Assembly (NCBI GenBank): GCA_902774125.1
Contig: CACYHD010000015.1
Span: 1-33,485 of the forward strand
Length of the DNA: 33,485 nucleotides
From: an uncultured Lachnospiraceae bacterium
GTDB lineage: Bacteria; Bacillota; Clostridia; Lachnospirales; Lachnospiraceae
Direction: 5' to 3'
Positions 8,063-30,724 of this stretch are shown one piece after another. Under the pieces are notes generated by a model. The model was not told where the DNA came from. It saw only the letters and a list, made by a program, of their open reading frames with translations, and searched no databases. Positions within the stretch are counted from its first letter, which is position 1; the number at the start of each line of letters is the position of its first letter. Made by a program: the position numbers and the translations under genes.

Positions 8063-8091
8063 TTGACAAATATCACACTCACCTATATACT
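8063..8091 (+). promoter_or_regulatory. Consensus promoter of the InlB-repeat protein gene
   Basis: On the plus strand a perfect TTGACA (8063-8068) and TATACT (8086-8091) are separated by 17 bases. Transcription would start near 8098, leaving a leader of about 20 nt that contains the AAGGAG site. Confidence 0.8.
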
Positions 8092-8116
8092 AATAACAAT
8101 GTTTAAGGAGACGACT

Positions 8117-8923
8117 ATGAAAAAACAATACTTTTTTTTATTACTATTTTTTGTATGCATATCAATTTTTTTCAACTGTTCACCAGTGTCCGCAAAAAAA
8201 AGTGTAAAAATTACGTACAACAGAAACAACGGTGTGTTCAGTAAAAAAAGCAATTCATCAAAAAATAAGGTCATAATAACACATAAAAAAGGAGTCAAAA
8301 GAGGTTATGCTCCATCCATAAAGCGTTCAAACTATACTTTTGATGGTTGGTTTTCAAAGAAAAAAAAAGGAAAAAAATATACCTACAATACAAAAATAAA
8401 AAAAAATACAAAACTATATCCTCACTGGATAAAACGATATAAAATACAAAAAAAATATTATTCTATTTTGTCTACAACCTATTTATCATTGGAACAACTC
8501 ACAGACGATATAGGACTTTTTTATTACAAGAAACAGTGGAATAGTTTCGACCAAGCTACAGTTTCAACAAAAAATGATGATTTATTCCTGTTAAATTTGG
8601 GAATAAATTATTCAATTGAACCCAATACATATAAGTACCATGTGCAAAAAATAACTACACAAATTAAAAGAATTATTCAAACAAAAAAGAATTATTCAAA
8701 AAACATTTTTCTAAAAAAACTTGGGAAGAAAAAATACGATTGTAATTACAATAAACGAAAACATATTCTTACCGTAATAAAAGGGAATACTACCTACTCC
8801 GATCCGACAACAGGTGATGCAGGCAAGTATTATATCAGTTGGAAGATTTTTTTGACGAAAAAAAATAAAATATCTCCAAACTCTAAAGTAATTTTAACAT
8901 TGCACGAAAATAACGAAATATAA
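8117..8923 (+). CDS. Secreted Lys-rich protein with an InlB B-type repeat
   Basis: This is the only plus-strand gene in the window. I take the start at 8117 (MKKQYFFLLLFF) because AAGGAG ends six bases upstream and the longer frame lacks a signal. The 268-residue product opens with a Sec signal peptide ending SPVSA before KKSVK. Residues about 29-90 match the InlB B-repeat/Flg_new pattern: ITYNRNNG, then NYTFDGWFSKKKKGKKYT, then NTKLYPHW. The remainder (about 175 residues) is not recognised. The whole protein is extremely Lys/Asn/Tyr-rich and the gene more AT-rich than its neighbours, which suggests recent acquisition or relaxed selection. It is probably exported and may bind the anionic cell wall through charge; no sortase or anchor motif is visible. 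It ends in a shared terminator with tadA. Confidence 0.75.
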   Translation: MKKQYFFLLLFFVCISIFFNCSPVSAKKSVKITYNRNNGVFSKKSNSSKNKVIITHKKGVKRGYAPSIKRSNYTFDGWFSKKKKGKKYTYNTKIKKNTKLYPHWIKRYKIQKKYYSILSTTYLSLEQLTDDIGLFYYKKQWNSFDQATVSTKNDDLFLLNLGINYSIEPNTYKYHVQKITTQIKRIIQTKKNYSKNIFLKKLGKKKYDCNYNKRKHILTVIKGNTTYSDPTTGDAGKYYISWKIFLTKKNKISPNSKVILTLHENNEI

Positions 8924-25316: not shown

Positions 25317-25817
25317 TTATTCTATACCTTCATCATCCAAACTTGGCACGAATGTTTCCGGCACTGTAAGCTTAGTTTGAGGAATATTTTTAACAAATGT
25401 ATCACTCAACGGTTTTTTTGGTTTAGGTATACTTGATGCCTTAGGCAAAGAAGAATGTTTAAATATACTCGACTTACCAGCCTTTGATGCCGCATGTTTA
25501 GCCGCTCCGCTCGAAGAGTGTGATGTGTGTCCTGATCCGTGGGAGGAATGACCCGACGCATGAGAATTATGATTCCCGTGACTCGAAGATGAATGAGATG
25601 TATGGGATACATGCGACCTATGATAGGATGTAGATGAATGCGAACTATGCGAACTATGTGAGGAATGTGCTGCATAAGCATTTACTCCCATTATCATTCC
25701 CATAAGCATTATCGTTGAGCCGATAACTACTAGTTTGCTTCTAGGTATACTCCCCTCTTCATCCTCAATAAAATCTTCTATGCTTTTTTTTATTGTTGGA
25801 AATAATTTTTCATCCAT
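25317..25817 (-). CDS. hxsA: His-Xaa-Ser repeat precursor protein (HxsA-like)
   Basis: The 166-residue product has three parts. Residues 1-28 are an acidic leader (FPTIKKSIEDFIEDEEG). Residues 29-49 are a hydrophobic segment ending VNAYA, a plausible signal peptidase site. From residue 51 to about 105 there is a dense His-Xaa-Ser tract (HSS repeated four times at the start, then HRS, HVS, HTS, HNS, HAS and so on, roughly 14 units), then a basic Ser/Ala/Pro-rich tail. There are no cysteines. This matches the concept of HxsA, the repeat protein that accompanies the HxsB/HxsC radical SAM pair. It is the last gene of the operon, with GAGGTG five bases before the ATG and 10 bases between it and the MORN gene. 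The nature of the modification is unknown. Confidence 0.8.
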   Translation of the reverse strand: MDEKLFPTIKKSIEDFIEDEEGSIPRSKLVVIGSTIMLMGMIMGVNAYAAHSSHSSHSSHSSTSYHRSHVSHTSHSSSSHGNHNSHASGHSSHGSGHTSHSSSGAAKHAASKAGKSSIFKHSSLPKASSIPKPKKPLSDTFVKNIPQTKLTVPETFVPSLDDEGIE

Positions 25818-25827
25818 ATTTTCACCT

Positions 25828-26526
25828 CTATCTTGTCACTCTTTTACACTTTCCTTTTTTCCAATACGTTTTATACTTAACACCTTTTTTTGTTTTGTAA
25901 AGCATTTTACCTAATGGTTTATTCTTTTTGAACTTTCCTTTTAGCCACTTTCCTTTAGTCTTCTTGCCATAGTAATAGGTGCCTTTACCATTCATTTTAT
26001 CCTTTTTCCAGTGTCCAATATATTTTCCACCTTTTTTCCACTTATAGGTGCCTTTACCACTACGGCGACCCTTTTTCCATTTTCCTGAATACTTATCGCC
26101 ATTTTTATACTTCATTGTGCCTTTACCGTTCAGTTTATTATGTTTAAACTTACCTTTAAAGTATGCACCATTTTTATACTTTATTTTGACACTCTTATCA
26201 AATTTGCCTTCATCAATACTAAAAGTATATTTGTTACCTAACTTTTTAATAATCACTTTACCATATACCAGTTTGTTCCCTTCAAAATCTCCCGACAGAA
26301 CAACACCATTGTTTTTTATAGTTCCTTCCCAGTACATACTATCGCTTTTCAATTTTTGTTGCTTAATGGTCAACATTTGAGAGCTAACAGAAACGATTGT
26401 TTCTTCCTTACTATTCATTTGTCCAAAAACAACATCATCTATTTTTGTTGTCTCATTATAATTACCATAAAAACAAAAAAGTATGACCATTACCACTATT
26501 ATCAGTGCCGAACATTTCTTTTTCAT
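25828..26526 (-). CDS. MORN-repeat membrane-anchored or secreted protein
   Basis: The start at 26526 (MKKKCSALIIVVMVILFCF, 232 residues) overlaps the hxsB stop by four bases (ATGA), and GAGGAG lies nine bases upstream; three codons further up there would be no spacing. After a single N-terminal hydrophobic segment (signal peptide or anchor) and about 90 residues without recognised motifs, at least five MORN-type repeats follow, such as YFKGKFKHNKLNGKGTMKY and YSGKWKKGRRSGKGTYKW. They are unusually Lys-rich, giving a very basic protein. MORN repeats bind phospholipids or act as scaffolds in other proteins. Placement between the maturase and the HxS precursor suggests a partner at the cell surface, which is inference. 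Confidence 0.75.
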   Translation of the reverse strand: MKKKCSALIIVVMVILFCFYGNYNETTKIDDVVFGQMNSKEETIVSVSSQMLTIKQQKLKSDSMYWEGTIKNNGVVLSGDFEGNKLVYGKVIIKKLGNKYTFSIDEGKFDKSVKIKYKNGAYFKGKFKHNKLNGKGTMKYKNGDKYSGKWKKGRRSGKGTYKWKKGGKYIGHWKKDKMNGKGTYYYGKKTKGKWLKGKFKKNKPLGKMLYKTKKGVKYKTYWKKGKCKRVTR

Positions 26527-27908
26527 TGTATCCATCTCCTCATAATTTTAACGTTTTCGTCATTATCATTAATAAGATTGAAAATACTCGTTAGTATTCC
26601 CTCATTTATTTTGCATCGATAATTTCTATGTTTTTTTGAAACGACATCTTTTTCTAATGCGTAATTCACTACTGGACAAACACCACAATACGGTTGGAAA
26701 GCACAATCACTACAATTAGGGATTCCTTCCAAAATACTTTTTTTACAAACAACTTTACTTGCACTTGATTCAAGCAACTCGTTATAAGACTTGTTAACAT
26801 CCCCTATACAAAACGATTCATCTCCCATTTCATATAACATTCGTCCTTCATCACAAGTAAATATTTTTCCATCATAATAGTAAGCCATTTGTCCCAAAGT
26901 GCCACCACACGGTGATCTCAATTCCATATAATTCGTTCCCCAACCATTTAAGATTTTTGATAGAAAAATCGAAGCATGACCTTCTTTAATAAAGATATTC
27001 TTTTTATTCAATTCTATAATATAGCGCAAACTGTTTGAGTAAAACTCGACAAATTCTTCAGCTGAATAGCCAATACTGTCCCATTTGTCATATGCACATC
27101 CTAATGGGGTTAATGGTCTAATAAAAATCTGTTCAAGACCTTTATTCACATAATCATCAATTATTTCTTTGTAACCATTCAAACTATTTCGAGTAGTCGT
27201 TTGAATAGCTCCAACTTTTATTCCATTAGTTCTCAATTGTTCTATACTACGAGAAACAATTTCATAAGAACTATGTCCATTCATAATCGGACGATTATCA
27301 TCATGCAAATCACTATGTCCGTCCAAAGATGTAGAAATAGTAATATTCTTTGTTTTAAAATACTCTATCATTTTTTCATCAAGCAAACTAAGATTAGTAA
27401 CAATGCTATAACTAATCTCTTTATTTTTCTTTGTTTTGTCAGTATAGTCGATAATATATTTTATTATCTCAAAATTGCTTAGTGGTTCGCCACCTTGGAA
27501 TTCAAAATCAAGCACTTTCTGGGGTGATTGTAAGGCAATATCCACTGCTTTCTTAGCCATTTCTTTGGTTAACTTCTTGCAAACATTTCTGTTATTACTA
27601 TTTGCTTGACAATATACACATTTACCATTGCAATAATTTGTTACTACAAATATGTGTAGAGCCGTTGCTCCAAACAAATAATTTTTCATATCTCTAAGAT
27701 AATACTTATATTGTTCAACGAACTCCTCTTTTGAACAATTATACAAAAACATACACCTTTCTAGTTCATTATAAACATCACTGTTAGGCTCTAATTTGTC
27801 ATCAATATATTTCAAAAACTCTTTGTTACTAAGAAAATAATATTTGCCCAAATCATTTGTAATCAGTATTTTATTGTTAATCTTCTTAAATTTAAATGGT
27901 GCAATCAC
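26523..27908 (-). CDS. hxsB: Radical SAM/SPASM maturase, HxsB-like
   Basis: This 461-residue enzyme begins with a short domain FKFKKINNKILITNDLGKYY that is typical of HxsB. The radical SAM cluster motif is C93-x3-C97-x2-C100 (YCNGKCVYC), followed by the GGEP segment (EFQGGEPLSNFE). The C-terminal part has a SPASM-type set of cysteines (SPCGGTLGQM, FTCDEGRM, GIPNCSDCAFQPYCGVCPV and RNYRCK) for auxiliary iron-sulfur clusters. Such enzymes install carbon-centred modifications in ribosomal peptides. The start is GTG (27908-27906), overlapping the hxsC stop by four bases, with AAAGG seven bases upstream. The natural substrate is probably the HxS-repeat protein encoded two genes later. Confidence 0.88.
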   Translation of the reverse strand: MIAPFKFKKINNKILITNDLGKYYFLSNKEFLKYIDDKLEPNSDVYNELERCMFLYNCSKEEFVEQYKYYLRDMKNYLFGATALHIFVVTNYCNGKCVYCQANSNNRNVCKKLTKEMAKKAVDIALQSPQKVLDFEFQGGEPLSNFEIIKYIIDYTDKTKKNKEISYSIVTNLSLLDEKMIEYFKTKNITISTSLDGHSDLHDDNRPIMNGHSSYEIVSRSIEQLRTNGIKVGAIQTTTRNSLNGYKEIIDDYVNKGLEQIFIRPLTPLGCAYDKWDSIGYSAEEFVEFYSNSLRYIIELNKKNIFIKEGHASIFLSKILNGWGTNYMELRSPCGGTLGQMAYYYDGKIFTCDEGRMLYEMGDESFCIGDVNKSYNELLESSASKVVCKKSILEGIPNCSDCAFQPYCGVCPVVNYALEKDVVSKKHRNYRCKINEGILTSIFNLINDNDENVKIMRRWIQ

Positions 27909-29008
27909 AATATCGCCTTTACGACTCCTTCCATTAATCTAAATGTTCCACTAAACATTCCACCACATGCATCTTTTTTTGCACATTTTTCACACTCTTC
28001 TAAATACTTGACTTTGTATTCTGTAATACTCTTTTCGCAAATTGGCCAGAATGCTCTATCCACACAACACAATGGATAATTATAAACGCCAACGTCAATT
28101 CCCGAAACAACTAGTCGTCTTATGGTATTTCGAATTTTTTTAAAAGACTCTTTATAATCAATCCACACTTCAGTCATATTTTTTCTAGCATTACCCAGCA
28201 TTTCTAGTCCTATAATATTAACTACACTTACATTAGGAATCTGCTCAATGATCAAATCAGCAATATTATCAATATCCTCTATGTTCAATTTACTAACTAC
28301 TATTCTTATTTCTAGTTTCAAATCCAATTGAGTTAATTTTTGCAATCCAGCAATAGTTTGATTAAACGCGCCTGAACTTCTAACAATATTATCGTGTTTT
28401 TCTTTTGTCGAACCATGTATTGGTATAGCCACCGTCATTTTTCTCGGAAAAGTAGCTTTAAACTTCTCAAAAAAACTGTTATTAGAAAAAACTCTACCAT
28501 TTGTTAACAATAGATATTCAACCTCATTCAAGCTTCTCTTAAGATAGGATAGCATTGTAAAAATATCCTCACCAAGTAAAAAAGGTTCTCCTCCAGTAAT
28601 AGTCAGATGAACTGCATCAGACGGAATTTGTTTACAAATCTGCATAAGATTCTCTATTTTTTCCACACCACTATCTCGCCTAACTATGTCACTCGTCGGA
28701 CACATAATACAGTTTGAATTACATTTATTCGTAATAAAAAGAGCATTATCAATTGAACTAGCATCGTAATACACATATGCCGCTTGATTATTAAACTCCA
28801 AAACGCTGTATTCTTCTAGAATATTCCAAGCCTCTATTTCATCGTCACCTATTTCAATTTCTATTCCACTTGGAAAAAAAAGAAGTTTCTTCGAACTTAA
28901 ATAAACGATACTATGGTCATTGCTCATCATTTCTTCTAGCGTTTCTTTGCTTTTTGCAAATGATGCAATCAAATATCCGCTTTTATAATTAGAAACTTTT
29001 AAAAGCAT
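27905..29008 (-). CDS. hxsC: Radical SAM protein, HxsC-like
   Basis: The 367-residue protein has an N-terminal ~85-residue domain, then the cluster motif C96-x3-C100-x2-C103 (KCNSNCIMCP), the TITGGEPFLL segment, and a C-terminal Cys-rich end (YPLCCVDRAFWPICEKS, then EECEKCAKKDACGG) that may hold an additional cluster. The CNSNCIMC form and the pairing with the other radical SAM gene fit HxsC. GGGGAGAG lies four bases before the ATG, and the gene overlaps the peptidase gene by 10 bases. Two radical SAM enzymes in one operon suggest either two successive modifications or a heteromeric complex, which cannot be decided from sequence. Confidence 0.87.
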   Translation of the reverse strand: MLLKVSNYKSGYLIASFAKSKETLEEMMSNDHSIVYLSSKKLLFFPSGIEIEIGDDEIEAWNILEEYSVLEFNNQAAYVYYDASSIDNALFITNKCNSNCIMCPTSDIVRRDSGVEKIENLMQICKQIPSDAVHLTITGGEPFLLGEDIFTMLSYLKRSLNEVEYLLLTNGRVFSNNSFFEKFKATFPRKMTVAIPIHGSTKEKHDNIVRSSGAFNQTIAGLQKLTQLDLKLEIRIVVSKLNIEDIDNIADLIIEQIPNVSVVNIIGLEMLGNARKNMTEVWIDYKESFKKIRNTIRRLVVSGIDVGVYNYPLCCVDRAFWPICEKSITEYKVKYLEECEKCAKKDACGGMFSGTFRLMEGVVKAIL

Positions 29009-30030
29009 AATTCTCTCCCCAACACAACAAAAACTGTAGAAATTGAAATAAACAATGCAAACGGAACTTTTTTAACAATTACAATTTCACTTAATTCTTT
29101 TTTTCTTGATATTGTAGTTTTTATCTTCTCCACATCTTCTCTTTTTAATCTAGATTTCAACGATTCGTCGGATACTTTATCAAATCCATTGTATCGATCA
29201 CTTACCATTAATATAGAATAAGCTGTAGACAATATCATTCCTGATGATAATTCATCAACAGTAATGCTCTTGTAGTTATATGTATTTGCAAAACTTCTGA
29301 CAAAAAATACAATTAAAACTGTTCCCCAAAGCAAAAAATTTATTCTGTTATAAACCATATTAGGTCCACTAACAAAAATCATAATATTACTTACAACAAG
29401 AACACACGACAATACAATTTTATTGTTTAGAATCTTGCTAAAAATAATAACCAAAACAATAATAATATTTACTACCGACAGATAGAACGAATATTTTTGT
29501 GGCAATCCAAGTATGCTATATAATCCATTAGTTAAATAACTAATTAGAACAATTGTAAAATAATATGATGCATACTTAAAAAAACTATATATAGTTCTTT
29601 GAGTCATATTATGTGTTTTTTGTCCCTTTTTAAATTTACAATACAGCGATTCCACTACCACGTATATATAACTTATGAAAAAAGAAATAACAGGAATTAG
29701 AAACACAATACTAACTTTGTACACTCTCATCTCATATATTTCATATGGTATTGATAAACATATAACCATAAAAAATTTACAATCACCACCTGCCCAAACA
29801 TTAGTGAAATATAATATAAGCGCTACTGCACAACAACTCAAAACTGTTACAAAATAGCTAAATATATTCCTATTATGTGCAAGGTAACTATTAATACAAT
29901 TTATGCAAACAGCTGCAATTCCAAAGCGTAATAACAACCTATTAGATATATGATTAGTTTTAATATCATTAAAACTAACAAATATACACATACATATAAT
30001 TATCAATTCAACCAAATACCTAATTTCCAT
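28999..30030 (-). CDS. A24-family (prepilin peptidase-like) membrane aspartyl protease
   Basis: The 343-residue protein is strongly hydrophobic with about seven to nine predicted membrane segments. The two A24 aspartates are visible: D22 in NDIKTNHISNRLL and D83 in VWAGGDCKFF, in the usual positions relative to membrane segments 1 and 3. The second motif reads AGGD instead of the common GxGD, so the first Gly is Ala. The C-terminal ~90 residues (ITVDELSSGMILSTAYSILM, SLKSRLKREDVEKIK, KKVPFALFISI) form an extension known from some A24 members. No pilin, secretion ATPase or competence gene is in the window. Its place inside the hxs operon, overlapping the genes on both sides, suggests cleavage of the HxS precursor leader, which is inference. 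Confidence 0.78.
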   Translation of the reverse strand: MEIRYLVELIIICMCIFVSFNDIKTNHISNRLLLRFGIAAVCINCINSYLAHNRNIFSYFVTVLSCCAVALILYFTNVWAGGDCKFFMVICLSIPYEIYEMRVYKVSIVFLIPVISFFISYIYVVVESLYCKFKKGQKTHNMTQRTIYSFFKYASYYFTIVLISYLTNGLYSILGLPQKYSFYLSVVNIIIVLVIIFSKILNNKIVLSCVLVVSNIMIFVSGPNMVYNRINFLLWGTVLIVFFVRSFANTYNYKSITVDELSSGMILSTAYSILMVSDRYNGFDKVSDESLKSRLKREDVEKIKTTISRKKELSEIVIVKKVPFALFISISTVFVVLGRELCF

Positions 30031-30232
30031 TTTTCTTCAACAATCCTATTAAGTAATTCTCGAACTCTTTAAACGTAATTTCAAAGTCAAAACACGAACT
30101 AATTACGCTTACAATGTAATACTCTGTCTTTTCATCAAACTTGAACTGCGCAATAGAATTATAATCTCTAATCCCCTGCCTAATAATATTTTCATTGTAA
30201 ATGCTTTTATTTAAATACAATTCTTTATTCAT
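30020..30232 (-). CDS. Second, short HxsD-like protein
   Basis: The ATG at 30232 (MNKELYLNKSIYNENIIRQ, 70 residues) overlaps the end of the upstream hxsD-like gene by eight bases. A TTG three codons earlier is possible but has no better ribosome binding site. The N-terminal pattern, IY followed by a helix with an Ala/Gly and Tyr, then alternating hydrophobic residues (EYYIVSVISSCFDFEITF), is like that of the longer HxsD-type protein, suggesting a paralogue or a small peptide-recognition partner. The gene also overlaps the A24 peptidase gene by 11 bases. Coupled translation is expected, since no clear ribosome binding site is seen. Confidence 0.6.
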   Translation of the reverse strand: MNKELYLNKSIYNENIIRQGIRDYNSIAQFKFDEKTEYYIVSVISSCFDFEITFKEFENYLIGLLKKNGN

Positions 30233-30599
30233 TTTTTTCAAACCAATCTACCAGGATATCTTCAAGATTACTATTAGTTGAATTATCACAATTCAAATCA
30301 TCACTATAATCACTATCGTCAATTATCGTCGATGCCAGTGCTCGAGCATAAATCATTTCTCTTAATCGATAAGTCTTGTCTTCAACAATATTCCTTACTT
30401 CCTGAACAAGCATTTCGTTCAAAAAATCCTTTTCACTAACTTTTAGCGTACTAGTCTGTTTTGGTTCTAGCTCAACTATGTAATCCTTTTCTCCCTCATC
30501 TAAATGGACATAATAATCGTCAACATATGAATATGCTGCTTTTATCAACGAGTGTTTAGAATATATTCCTTTACTGAACTTAAATATCACTAATCCCAT
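30225..30599 (-). CDS. hxsD: HxsD-like maturation protein, first gene of the hxs operon
   Basis: The 124-residue protein begins IFKFSKGIYSKHSLIKAAYS, then alternating strand residues (YYVHLDEGEKDYIVELEP), followed by a helix around FLNEMLVQEVRNIVEDKTYRL and a polar acidic tail. This matches the small HxsD family that accompanies HxsB and HxsC and is thought to help in maturation, perhaps by presenting the substrate. AGGAG lies six bases before the ATG, and a promoter candidate at 30660-30688 sits just upstream. It heads a run of seven genes that overlap or are spaced by no more than 10 bases. Assignment rests on family pattern plus neighbours. Confidence 0.75.
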   Translation of the reverse strand: MGLVIFKFSKGIYSKHSLIKAAYSYVDDYYVHLDEGEKDYIVELEPKQTSTLKVSEKDFLNEMLVQEVRNIVEDKTYRLREMIYARALASTIIDDSDYSDDLNCDNSTNSNLEDILVDWFEKNE

Positions 30600-30696: not shown

Positions 30697-30724
30697 AAAA
30701 GAGATGCTATATAGCATCTCTTTT
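30697..30724. terminator. Symmetrical terminator between ugd and the hxs operon
   Basis: A perfect palindrome GAGATGCTATATAGCATCTC at 30701-30720, flanked by AAAA and TTTT, forms a GC-containing stem followed by T residues on both strands. On the minus strand it ends the ugd transcript and separates it from the hxs operon. Confidence 0.85.

What the first reader, a model, noticed from the sequence alone, without database searches (positions are those of the whole stretch)
25317..30599. Seven-gene His-Xaa-Ser radical SAM island with non-canonical partners
The sequence shows an HxsD-type protein, a second short HxsD-like protein, an A24 peptidase, two radical SAM enzymes with CxxxCxxC motifs, a MORN-repeat protein and an HxS-repeat precursor. 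All lie on one strand, overlapping or within about 10 bases of each other. The hxsA-B-C-D set is a known computationally defined system of unknown product. The peptidase, the MORN protein and the second HxsD-like protein are additions that I do not know as part of the defined set. The island is visibly more AT-rich than the flanks and sits between ftsH and capsule genes. I infer a surface-exposed, post-translationally modified His/Ser protein made and exported by this operon.
Basis: partly seen in the sequence, partly recalled or inferred. Interest (0 to 1): 0.85.

Follow-up and report, generated by a model that had tools for sequence, protein, structure and literature searches.

The report
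Prepilin-peptidase His-Xaa-Ser protein operon
This stretch is a seven-gene operon that probably makes a chemically modified histidine/serine-rich surface protein, and it appears to use its own pilus-type leader peptidase to mature it, a step that we found no description of for this family.

Summary
In detail: seven minus-strand genes, HxsD, HxsD-like, A24 peptidase, HxsC, HxsB, MORN protein, HxsA3. The hxs core is known and the HxsD-like protein is an existing NCBI family (NF038315), so only the A24 and MORN genes are unexplained additions. They are real partners: among 18 Bacillota-type loci, A24 is in 18 and MORN in 15, always directly upstream of hxsA3. The A24s form one subfamily. In sampled genomes it is in 4 of 392 of the order (the four with HxsC over cut-off) and 2 of 398 of the phylum; the one new genome holds the same seven-gene operon. 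It tracks HxsA precursors with a leader like F-L-x-x-E-E-[G/A] before a hydrophobic segment: 41 of 41 genomes or loci with it have the A24, 0 of 20 with another leader do. The leader resembles this genome's Tad prepilin. Best reading: HxsB/HxsC modify the HxS repeats and the dedicated A24 cuts HxsA after that Gly/Ala. Cleavage, chemistry and function are not shown. Verdict: new variant of a known system.

The parts
30225..30599 (-). HxsD (124 aa)
   Evidence: TIGR03976 72.4 bits, cut-off 50. AlphaFold2 model mean pLDDT 84.1: beta-alpha-beta-beta-long helix; best Foldseek match in the PDB E 0.036, so no assigned fold, and not the topology of a winged-helix RRE (topology of RREs recalled)
30020..30241 (-). 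HxsD-like protein (73 aa)
   Evidence: NF038315 53.8 bits, cut-off 41; over the cut-off in 12 of 18 Bacillota-type loci, the window included
28999..30030 (-). A24 (prepilin-type) peptidase, 343 aa; D22, N30, G82-D83, K85 invariant in its subfamily; C-terminal domain of archaeal A24 type
   Evidence: PF01478 40.6 bits; alignment A6 of 24; Arc_PepC_II matched in 2 and Arc_PepC in 1 of the 24 members, not in the window protein; the one solved relative found is FlaK 3s0x, 17.2 bits, E 0.022
27905..29008 (-). HxsC radical SAM maturase (367 aa)
   Evidence: TIGR03977 316.6 bits; C96, C100, C103 and C314, C339, C342, C348 invariant in 4 aligned
26523..27908 (-). HxsB radical SAM/SPASM maturase (461 aa)
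   Evidence: TIGR03978 525.7 bits; C93, C97, C100 plus C334, C352, C388, C399, C402, C408, C411, C432 invariant in 4 aligned; best solved relative 5wgg, 115.6 bits
25828..26535 (-). MORN-repeat protein (235 aa) with an N-terminal hydrophobic helix
   Evidence: PF02493 43 bits; single-sequence model of mean pLDDT 47.9, helix 3-23 then beta strands (low confidence); directly upstream of hxsA3 in 15 of 15 loci that have it
25317..25817 (-). HxsA3 precursor (166 aa): leader ...SIEDFIEDEEG | SIPRSK, hydrophobic segment, A-Y-A|A, then HxS repeats
   Evidence: NF038309 97.5 bits; leader analysis
25752..25754 (-). Codon of Gly22 of HxsA3, the predicted -1 residue of A24 cleavage
   Evidence: Inferred: G in 33 and A in 2 of 35 leaders, E two residues before it in 35 of 35; position computed from the ORF start at 25817 (codon reads GGG)
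30697..30724 (.). Terminator-like hairpin between the UDP-sugar dehydrogenase gene and hxsD
   Evidence: Pattern scan, reported on the + strand; 2 found against 1.5 expected in shuffles: weak

Best explanation
A His-Xaa-Ser (hxs) operon of a distinct, prepilin-peptidase-dependent subtype. HxsA3 is made with a hydrophilic leader ending E-E-G, then a membrane segment, then HxS repeats. In the cytoplasm HxsB and HxsC, helped by HxsD and the HxsD-like protein, modify the His/Ser repeats (inferred from family). The protein is threaded through the membrane like a prepilin; the dedicated A24 peptidase cuts after the Gly/Ala of the E-E-G motif on the inner face (inferred from conservation, co-occurrence and what is known of A24 enzymes), and a signal-peptidase-I-like site just after the membrane segment may free or expose the repeat domain. 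The membrane-anchored MORN protein is the outer-side partner that holds or orders it at the cell wall (weakest step). The likeliest chemistry is a His(i)-to-Ser(i+2) side-chain cross-link in each HxS unit.
For: Core identity: five NCBIfam models over cut-off. A24 linkage: 18 of 18 Bacillota-type loci. 0 of 20 genomes with other HxsA leaders, best 31.5 bits. 4 of 392 genomes of the order, the same four with HxsC over cut-off. 2 of 398 of the phylum, the one new hit being a seven-gene operon in window order. 6 of 6 A24-bearing genomes without HxsA in the stretch have one elsewhere, with E-E-G (5) or E-E-A (1). Site: 35 leaders, G 33 / A 2, hydrophobic stretch starting at +7 in 32; prepilin leaders invariably end in Gly or Ala (PMC10191384, section 12). 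Motif plus hydrophobic stretch: 36 in 1.53 Mb of six-frame sequence, 33 in HxS proteins, one the genome's own Tad pilin. Pairwise-identity correlation A24-HxsB 0.74, HxsC-HxsB 0.78, 17 loci. Chemistry precedent: radical SAM His(i)-residue(i+2) links by HaaB, ScaB, YhhB (PMC11002830 passages).
Against: No experiment. HxsA lacks the Glu/Asp at +5 usual in pilins (0 of 35) and matches no pilin family. The conserved [AV]x[AG] site could be enough for export by signal peptidase I alone. E-E-G may be a binding motif for HxsB/HxsD, not a cut site. The leader/A24 correlation has few independent origins: 4 changes on the HxsB tree, 2 on well-supported branches, too few for a sign test. Profile A6 was built from HXS-linked A24s, so in-locus matches of its members count for little. 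Of the 11 remote A24s two are partial matches (118 and 240 of 344 columns), and two stretches (L182, L186) show no radical SAM gene nearby. The A24s of L145, L146 and L188 fall under the Pfam cut-off (21.6, 18.1, no match), though the subfamily profile gives 273, 176 and 228 bits. MORN is absent in 3 of 18 loci and the HxsD-like gene in 6 of 18. Class borders are not perfectly sharp: L054's hydrophobic stretch is weak (1.1) and L056, counted as 'other', has G-E-K-K before a hydrophobic stretch. HxsD does not look like a known recognition element.
Confidence: 0.7

Rival explanations
1. The E-E-G motif is a recognition site for the maturases, HxsA3 is exported by Sec and cut only by signal peptidase I at A-Y-A|A; the A24 cuts another substrate or has another role.
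For: Conserved [AV]x[AG] site after the hydrophobic segment in Bacillota HxsA3; plasmid HxsA/HxsA2 proteins with ordinary Sec-like signals manage without an A24 in the stretch.
Against: In 30 non-Bacillota stretches the motif before a hydrophobic segment occurs 10 times, only in HxsA; in the wider scan the only N-terminal non-HxS match is the Tad pilin. A24 presence follows this leader in 41 of 41 versus 0 of 20.
Confidence: 0.2
2. HxsA is a true pilin-like subunit that is assembled into a type IV-like filament after A24 processing, perhaps by the cell's Tad machinery.
For: Leader spacing matches the genome's own Tad pilin (Phe, Glu and Gly at the same places); the genome has a TadA-like ATPase and two further, smaller A24s, one of them in the Tad locus.
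Against: No ATPase or platform gene seen in the seven-gene unit; no +5 Glu; a signal-peptidase-like site would cut the stalk off; whether other HXS genomes have Tad or type IV pilus genes was not tested.
Confidence: 0.1
3. An unrelated A24 and MORN gene happened to insert in an hxs operon.
For: A24 and MORN are broad families; the island's A24 is in 1 of 24 genomes of its genus.
Against: 18 of 18 and 15 of 18 loci, conserved adjacency, congruent divergence, re-finding with the A24 profile in another family of the phylum.
Confidence: 0.01

Closest known systems
His-Xaa-Ser (HxsA-B-C-D) system, NCBIfam TIGR03976/03977/03978, HxsA2 and Klebsiella-type HxsA loci
   Same: Two radical SAM maturases, HxsD, HxsA with HxS repeats
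   Different: In the three plasmid loci examined no A24 or MORN is annotated within 6 kb and none is found in six frames, and HxsA carries an ordinary Sec-like signal by eye
HxsA3 (NF038309) and HxsD-like (NF038315) NCBIfam families
   Same: The window's precursor and small protein belong to them
   Different: No NCBIfam model matched the A24 or MORN partner (0 families for each up to E 1)
Tad/Flp prepilin and TadV; archaeal FlaK/PibD-type A24 peptidases
   Same: A24 catalytic Asp and GD motif; hydrophilic leader ending Gly/Ala before a hydrophobic stretch (PMC3244431 passages, PMC10191384 section 12)
   Different: Substrate is a HxS-repeat protein without +5 Glu, no filament machinery in the unit; some A24 members have an archaeal-type C-terminal domain
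Triceptide / bicyclostreptin radical SAM RiPPs (HaaB, YhhB, HghB/HghC)
   Same: Radical SAM enzymes acting on His (and Ser) in short motifs; bicyclostreptin also uses two of them (PMC11002830 passages)
   Different: Only superfamily-level similarity to HxsB (YhhB model 61.2 bits against a cut-off of 445); product here unknown

Membership tests
His-Xaa-Ser (hxs) system | HxsB, HxsC, HxsD over NCBIfam cut-offs, clustered | tested here: met
His-Xaa-Ser (hxs) system | HxS-repeat precursor beside them | tested here: met
   HxsA3 97.5 bits, cut-off 65
His-Xaa-Ser (hxs) system | Radical SAM modification of the repeats | not testable with these tools
   No product described in the papers found
A24 peptidase | Two catalytic Asp, GD motif | tested here: met
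   D22 and G82-D83 invariant in 24 of 24; PF01478 over cut-off in the window protein
Type IV prepilin | Leader ending Gly/Ala before a hydrophobic stretch | tested here: met
   35 of 35 leaders; but these were chosen by a motif that allows only G or A
Type IV prepilin | Glu (or Asp) at +5 | tested here: not met
   +5 is S 12, N 8, G 8, K 4, A 2, H 1 of 35; the review says 'often, but not always' Glu
Type IV prepilin | Match to a pilin family model | tested here: not met
   No pilin family up to E 1 for HxsA3
Type IV prepilin | Cleavage by the peptidase | not testable with these tools
   needs N-terminal analysis
RiPP with a stand-alone RRE | Winged-helix recognition element in HxsD | tested here: inconclusive
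   Model topology beta-alpha-beta-beta-helix; no PDB match with E below 0.03. HxsB's own N-terminus was not modelled

The most novel reading that the evidence does not exclude
A phylum-spanning class of radical-SAM-modified surface proteins whose leader is a prepilin-type (class III) signal peptide removed by a dedicated, co-evolved A24 peptidase: a new kind of leader protease for RiPP-like maturation, with its own A24 subfamily, found in contigs labelled Bacillota, Elusimicrobiota, Omnitrophota, Bdellovibrionota, Parcubacteria and possibly an archaeon.
Probability: 0.62. Interest if true: 0.82.

Novelty: new variant of a known kind. Interest (0 to 1): 0.7.

Why it matters
It gives the uncharacterised His-Xaa-Ser systems a concrete, testable maturation step and a predicted cut site, splits them into export classes (prepilin-type leader with A24; ordinary Sec-like signal; no membrane segment), and suggests that prepilin peptidases serve radical SAM peptide maturation outside pili. 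A review of leader proteases in RiPP biosynthesis has no hit for prepilin, A24, aspartyl, aspartic protease or signal peptidase; its one intramembrane protease hit is the M50 enzyme EpeP (PMC10885120, term search of the main text only). No paper in the library held 'prepilin peptidase', 'radical SAM' and 'RiPP' together.

Tried and rejected
Defence system: PADLOC gives only viperin-model matches to HxsB/HxsC (41.9-54.2 bits), which I read as generic radical SAM similarity; rejected. HxsD as a winged-helix RRE: not supported by the model. Phage origin: HxsB hit a 'Bacteriophage sp.' record, but it is an unverified faecal scaffold with a FabZ-like ORF (recalled name) and the same seven genes, probably bacterial; L146 sits beside an integrase-like and a lysin-like gene (recalled), so it may be host DNA flanking a prophage. 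Co-transcription with the capsule genes: promoter-like sites are at chance level (34 found, 35.8 expected) and a terminator-like hairpin lies between; left open. Empty-site test: in four genus relatives ftsH is preceded by nad-like genes and, in three of the four, a divergent pyrG-like gene (names recalled), with no BLAST match to the hxs or capsule genes of the window in those stretches; the spot is variable but no clean empty site was shown. MORN structure: low confidence. PDB sequence search for HxsD gave nothing below E 0.08.

Rows dropped: of the 79 loci, 23 had neither an HxS ORF (at least 5 H-x-[ST] in a 38-residue window) nor an A24 in the stretch and were left out of the leader table; L045 repeats L038, and L104 repeats the contig of L080. 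The 41/20 leader classes were drawn by me before the whole-genome A24 searches, but after seeing which stretches held an A24. In one search the Tad stretch L125 was included because it held the Tad genes, so that match was not blind.

Full report
What is there. Seven minus-strand ORFs fill 25317-30599, overlapping or 10 nt apart. NCBIfam places five over their curated cut-offs: HxsD, HxsD-like, HxsC, HxsB, HxsA3. Pfam places the other two: Peptidase_A24 and MORN. No NCBIfam model matched those two up to E 1. GC is 31.0% against 38.0% for the window.

How common. HxsC passes its cut-off in 4 of 392 sampled genomes of the order. The island's A24 type is in 1 of 24 genomes of the genus. In four genus relatives the genes upstream of ftsH are different. 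So the operon is sporadic and probably horizontally moved (inference).

Neighbourhoods. I compared 18 Bacillota-type loci: the window; L036-L038; L039-L044 and L046-L050 from a genome-contig scan (mapped); L145 and L146; L188. L145 (a faecal scaffold) and L146 (an IMG/VR contig) have no reliable taxon; they join the clostridial clade on the HxsB tree. A24 is present in 18 of 18, MORN in 15 of 18 (absent in L036, L037, L040, also by a six-frame profile search). PF02493 was run on 11 of the 15 MORN proteins and passed its cut-off in each; the other four are assigned by clustering. The HxsD-like family NF038315 passes its cut-off in 12 of 18; in the other six no such gene was seen in the ORF tables. 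MORN lies directly upstream of hxsA3 in all 15, also where the order of the operon is changed. The exact window order is seen in 7 of 18 (window, L039, L041, L043, L049, L145, L188). L051, kept by the same scan, is a HxsB relative without the system in its stretch. Pairwise identities of A24 and HxsB correlate at 0.74 over 17 loci, near HxsC-HxsB at 0.78; MORN-HxsB is 0.64 over 14; 0 of 2000 shuffles reached any of the ten pairs. Shared descent of the loci alone would give such values, so this shows long co-inheritance, not contact.

The A24 is a subfamily of its own. Twenty-four members from contigs labelled Bacillota, Elusimicrobia, Omnitrophota, Woesearchaeota and unnamed bacteria align with D22, N30, G82-D83, K85 and F117 invariant. 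PF01478 matches 22 of 24 at E up to 1; Arc_PepC_II matches 2 and Arc_PepC 1. The only solved relative found is FlaK, at 17.2 bits. Three A24s outside the alignment fall under the Pfam cut-off (L145 21.6, L146 18.1, L188 no match) but match a profile of the subfamily at 273, 176 and 228 bits.

The leader. In A24-bearing systems HxsA begins with a hydrophilic leader ending mostly F-L-x-[SED]-E-E-[G/A], then about six residues, then a hydrophobic stretch. Over 35 such leaders: E two residues before the Gly in 35, Gly 33 and Ala 2, Phe six residues before in 31, the hydrophobic stretch starting at +7 in 32. The 35 were picked by a motif that allows only G or A there, so the G/A count is partly by selection; the Phe position and the spacing are not in the motif. 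A scan of 1.53 Mb in six frames with a motif that does include Phe/Tyr gave 36 motif-plus-hydrophobic matches: 33 in HxS proteins, two internal to other ORFs, and one in this genome's own Tad pilin, FFAKEDG|MGVVE, with the same spacing (the Tad stretch had been included on purpose). Prepilin leaders invariably end in Gly or Ala before a 20-25 residue hydrophobic stretch, often but not always with Glu at 5 (PMC10191384, section 12 read); TadV cuts Flp precursors (PMC3244431, passages).

Leader against peptidase. Forty-one loci or genomes have the E-E-G/A leader (one, L112, reads E-E-K-G), and all have an A24 of the subfamily. In 24 it is in the fetched stretch. In 11 it was not, and a whole-genome search found one in 11 of 11 (80.7-331 bits; two partial matches). 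Twelve stretches around the hits were inspected (G402 gave two): a radical SAM gene touches the A24 in 8, lies within 2 kb in 2 more (L183, L185), and is not seen in L182 and L186, the latter a contig end. In the remaining 6 the A24 was in the stretch but HxsA was not; HxsA was found elsewhere in 6 of 6 with E-E-G (5) or E-E-A (1). Of 20 genomes whose HxsA has another leader, none has the subfamily; two gave 27.5 and 31.5 bit N-terminal matches. In the order sample the A24 is in 4 of 392 at E up to 1e-12, the same four as HxsC. In the phylum sample it is in 2 of 398; the new one, G585, turned out to hold the seven-gene operon in window order, with HxsD, HxsD-like and HxsA3 over their cut-offs. 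On a HxsB tree of 54 rows (quick method) the leader type changes 4 times, 2 on well-supported branches, and A24 changes with it each time; that is too few for a test. Three annotated plasmid loci (Nostoc, Acidiphilium, Klebsiella) have hxsA or hxsA2, B and C (and an annotated D in two of them); no A24 or MORN is found in six frames within 6 kb, and their HxsA proteins have ordinary Sec-like signals by eye.

Mechanism. Shown: gene content, linkage, leader-peptidase association. Inferred: the A24 cuts HxsA3 after Gly22 at the inner membrane face; HxsB and HxsC modify the repeats first, since radical SAM clusters work in the cytoplasm (established knowledge, recalled); a signal-peptidase-like [AV]x[AG] site follows the hydrophobic segment in the Bacillota proteins and may release the repeat domain. 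The MORN protein has an N-terminal hydrophobic helix (low-confidence model), and in L146 a PG_binding_1 domain of 56.3 bits, which favours an outer, wall-side role; Aeromonas HxsA itself ends in PG_binding_1 (40.1 bits). HxsB has cysteines spaced as in SPASM domains (pattern recalled) and its best solved relative is 5wgg at 115.6 bits. For chemistry, radical SAM enzymes HaaB, ScaB and YhhB join His(i) to the beta carbon of residue i+2 or of an Arg in short motifs (PMC11002830, passages), the geometry of H-x-S; I give this about 0.3. HxsD is predicted with good confidence (pLDDT 84.1) as beta-alpha-beta-beta-long helix and matches nothing clearly.

Confidence by step: hxs system 0.97; A24 and MORN genuine partners 0.97 and 0.9; HxsA3 is the A24 substrate 0.75; cut after Gly22 0.7; surface or wall location 0.7; His-Ser cross-link 0.3; filament 0.1.

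Literature. Three papers in the library hold 'His-Xaa-Ser'. PMC9062424 (passages) cites Haft and Basu for the motif and HxsB/HxsC as putative maturases; PMC8446631 (passage) lists the genes among those near a resistance gene; the third, PMC6537148, I saw only in the listing. The passages seen do not describe the product. Searches for HxsA-D names, HxsA3, and prepilin peptidase with radical SAM and RiPP found no paper describing the A24 link. The library lacks most subscription journals.

Noticed in passing
L092:6642-7232 and L096:7221-7607 (clusters in 6 and 9 Elusimicrobia-type loci): Upstream of Elusimicrobia-type hxs loci lie a secreted-looking ribonuclease (PF00545, 50.7 bits) and a barstar-like inhibitor (PF01337, 75.3 bits), a barnase/barstar-like pair; one member of each cluster was tested.
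   Followed up: partly
L038, L049, L188 (and the first of them in L043), downstream of hxsA3: Extra genes follow hxsA3: a membrane-anchored DUF5050-type protein, and in L038 and L049 a ClpA-like AAA ATPase and a kinase-like protein, in L038 a PP2C-like one, suggesting a larger regulated cassette (names other than DUF5050 recalled from sequence).
   Followed up: partly
L175, L176, L177: Elusimicrobia A24 genes sit in runs of many radical SAM genes, so their systems may use far more than two maturases.
   Followed up: no
L112:6850-7422: HxsA of a contig labelled Woesearchaeota carries a Peptidase_S74 endosialidase-chaperone domain (46.8 bits), pointing to a fibre-like surface protein.
   Followed up: no
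L037 and L040 HxsA3 C-termini: HxsA3 with a similar extra C-terminal repeat-like region in two of the three loci that lack MORN.
   Followed up: no
plasmid collection: HxsB relatives occur in 412 plasmid records, 317 of them Klebsiella; 325 of the 412 are predicted conjugative.
   Followed up: no
window 8063-8923: A plus-strand ORF with repeat-like residues recalling InlB-type surface repeats, in a window where nearly all other long ORFs of gene size are on the minus strand, in a local AT-rich dip (28% GC) (repeat name recalled).
   Followed up: no
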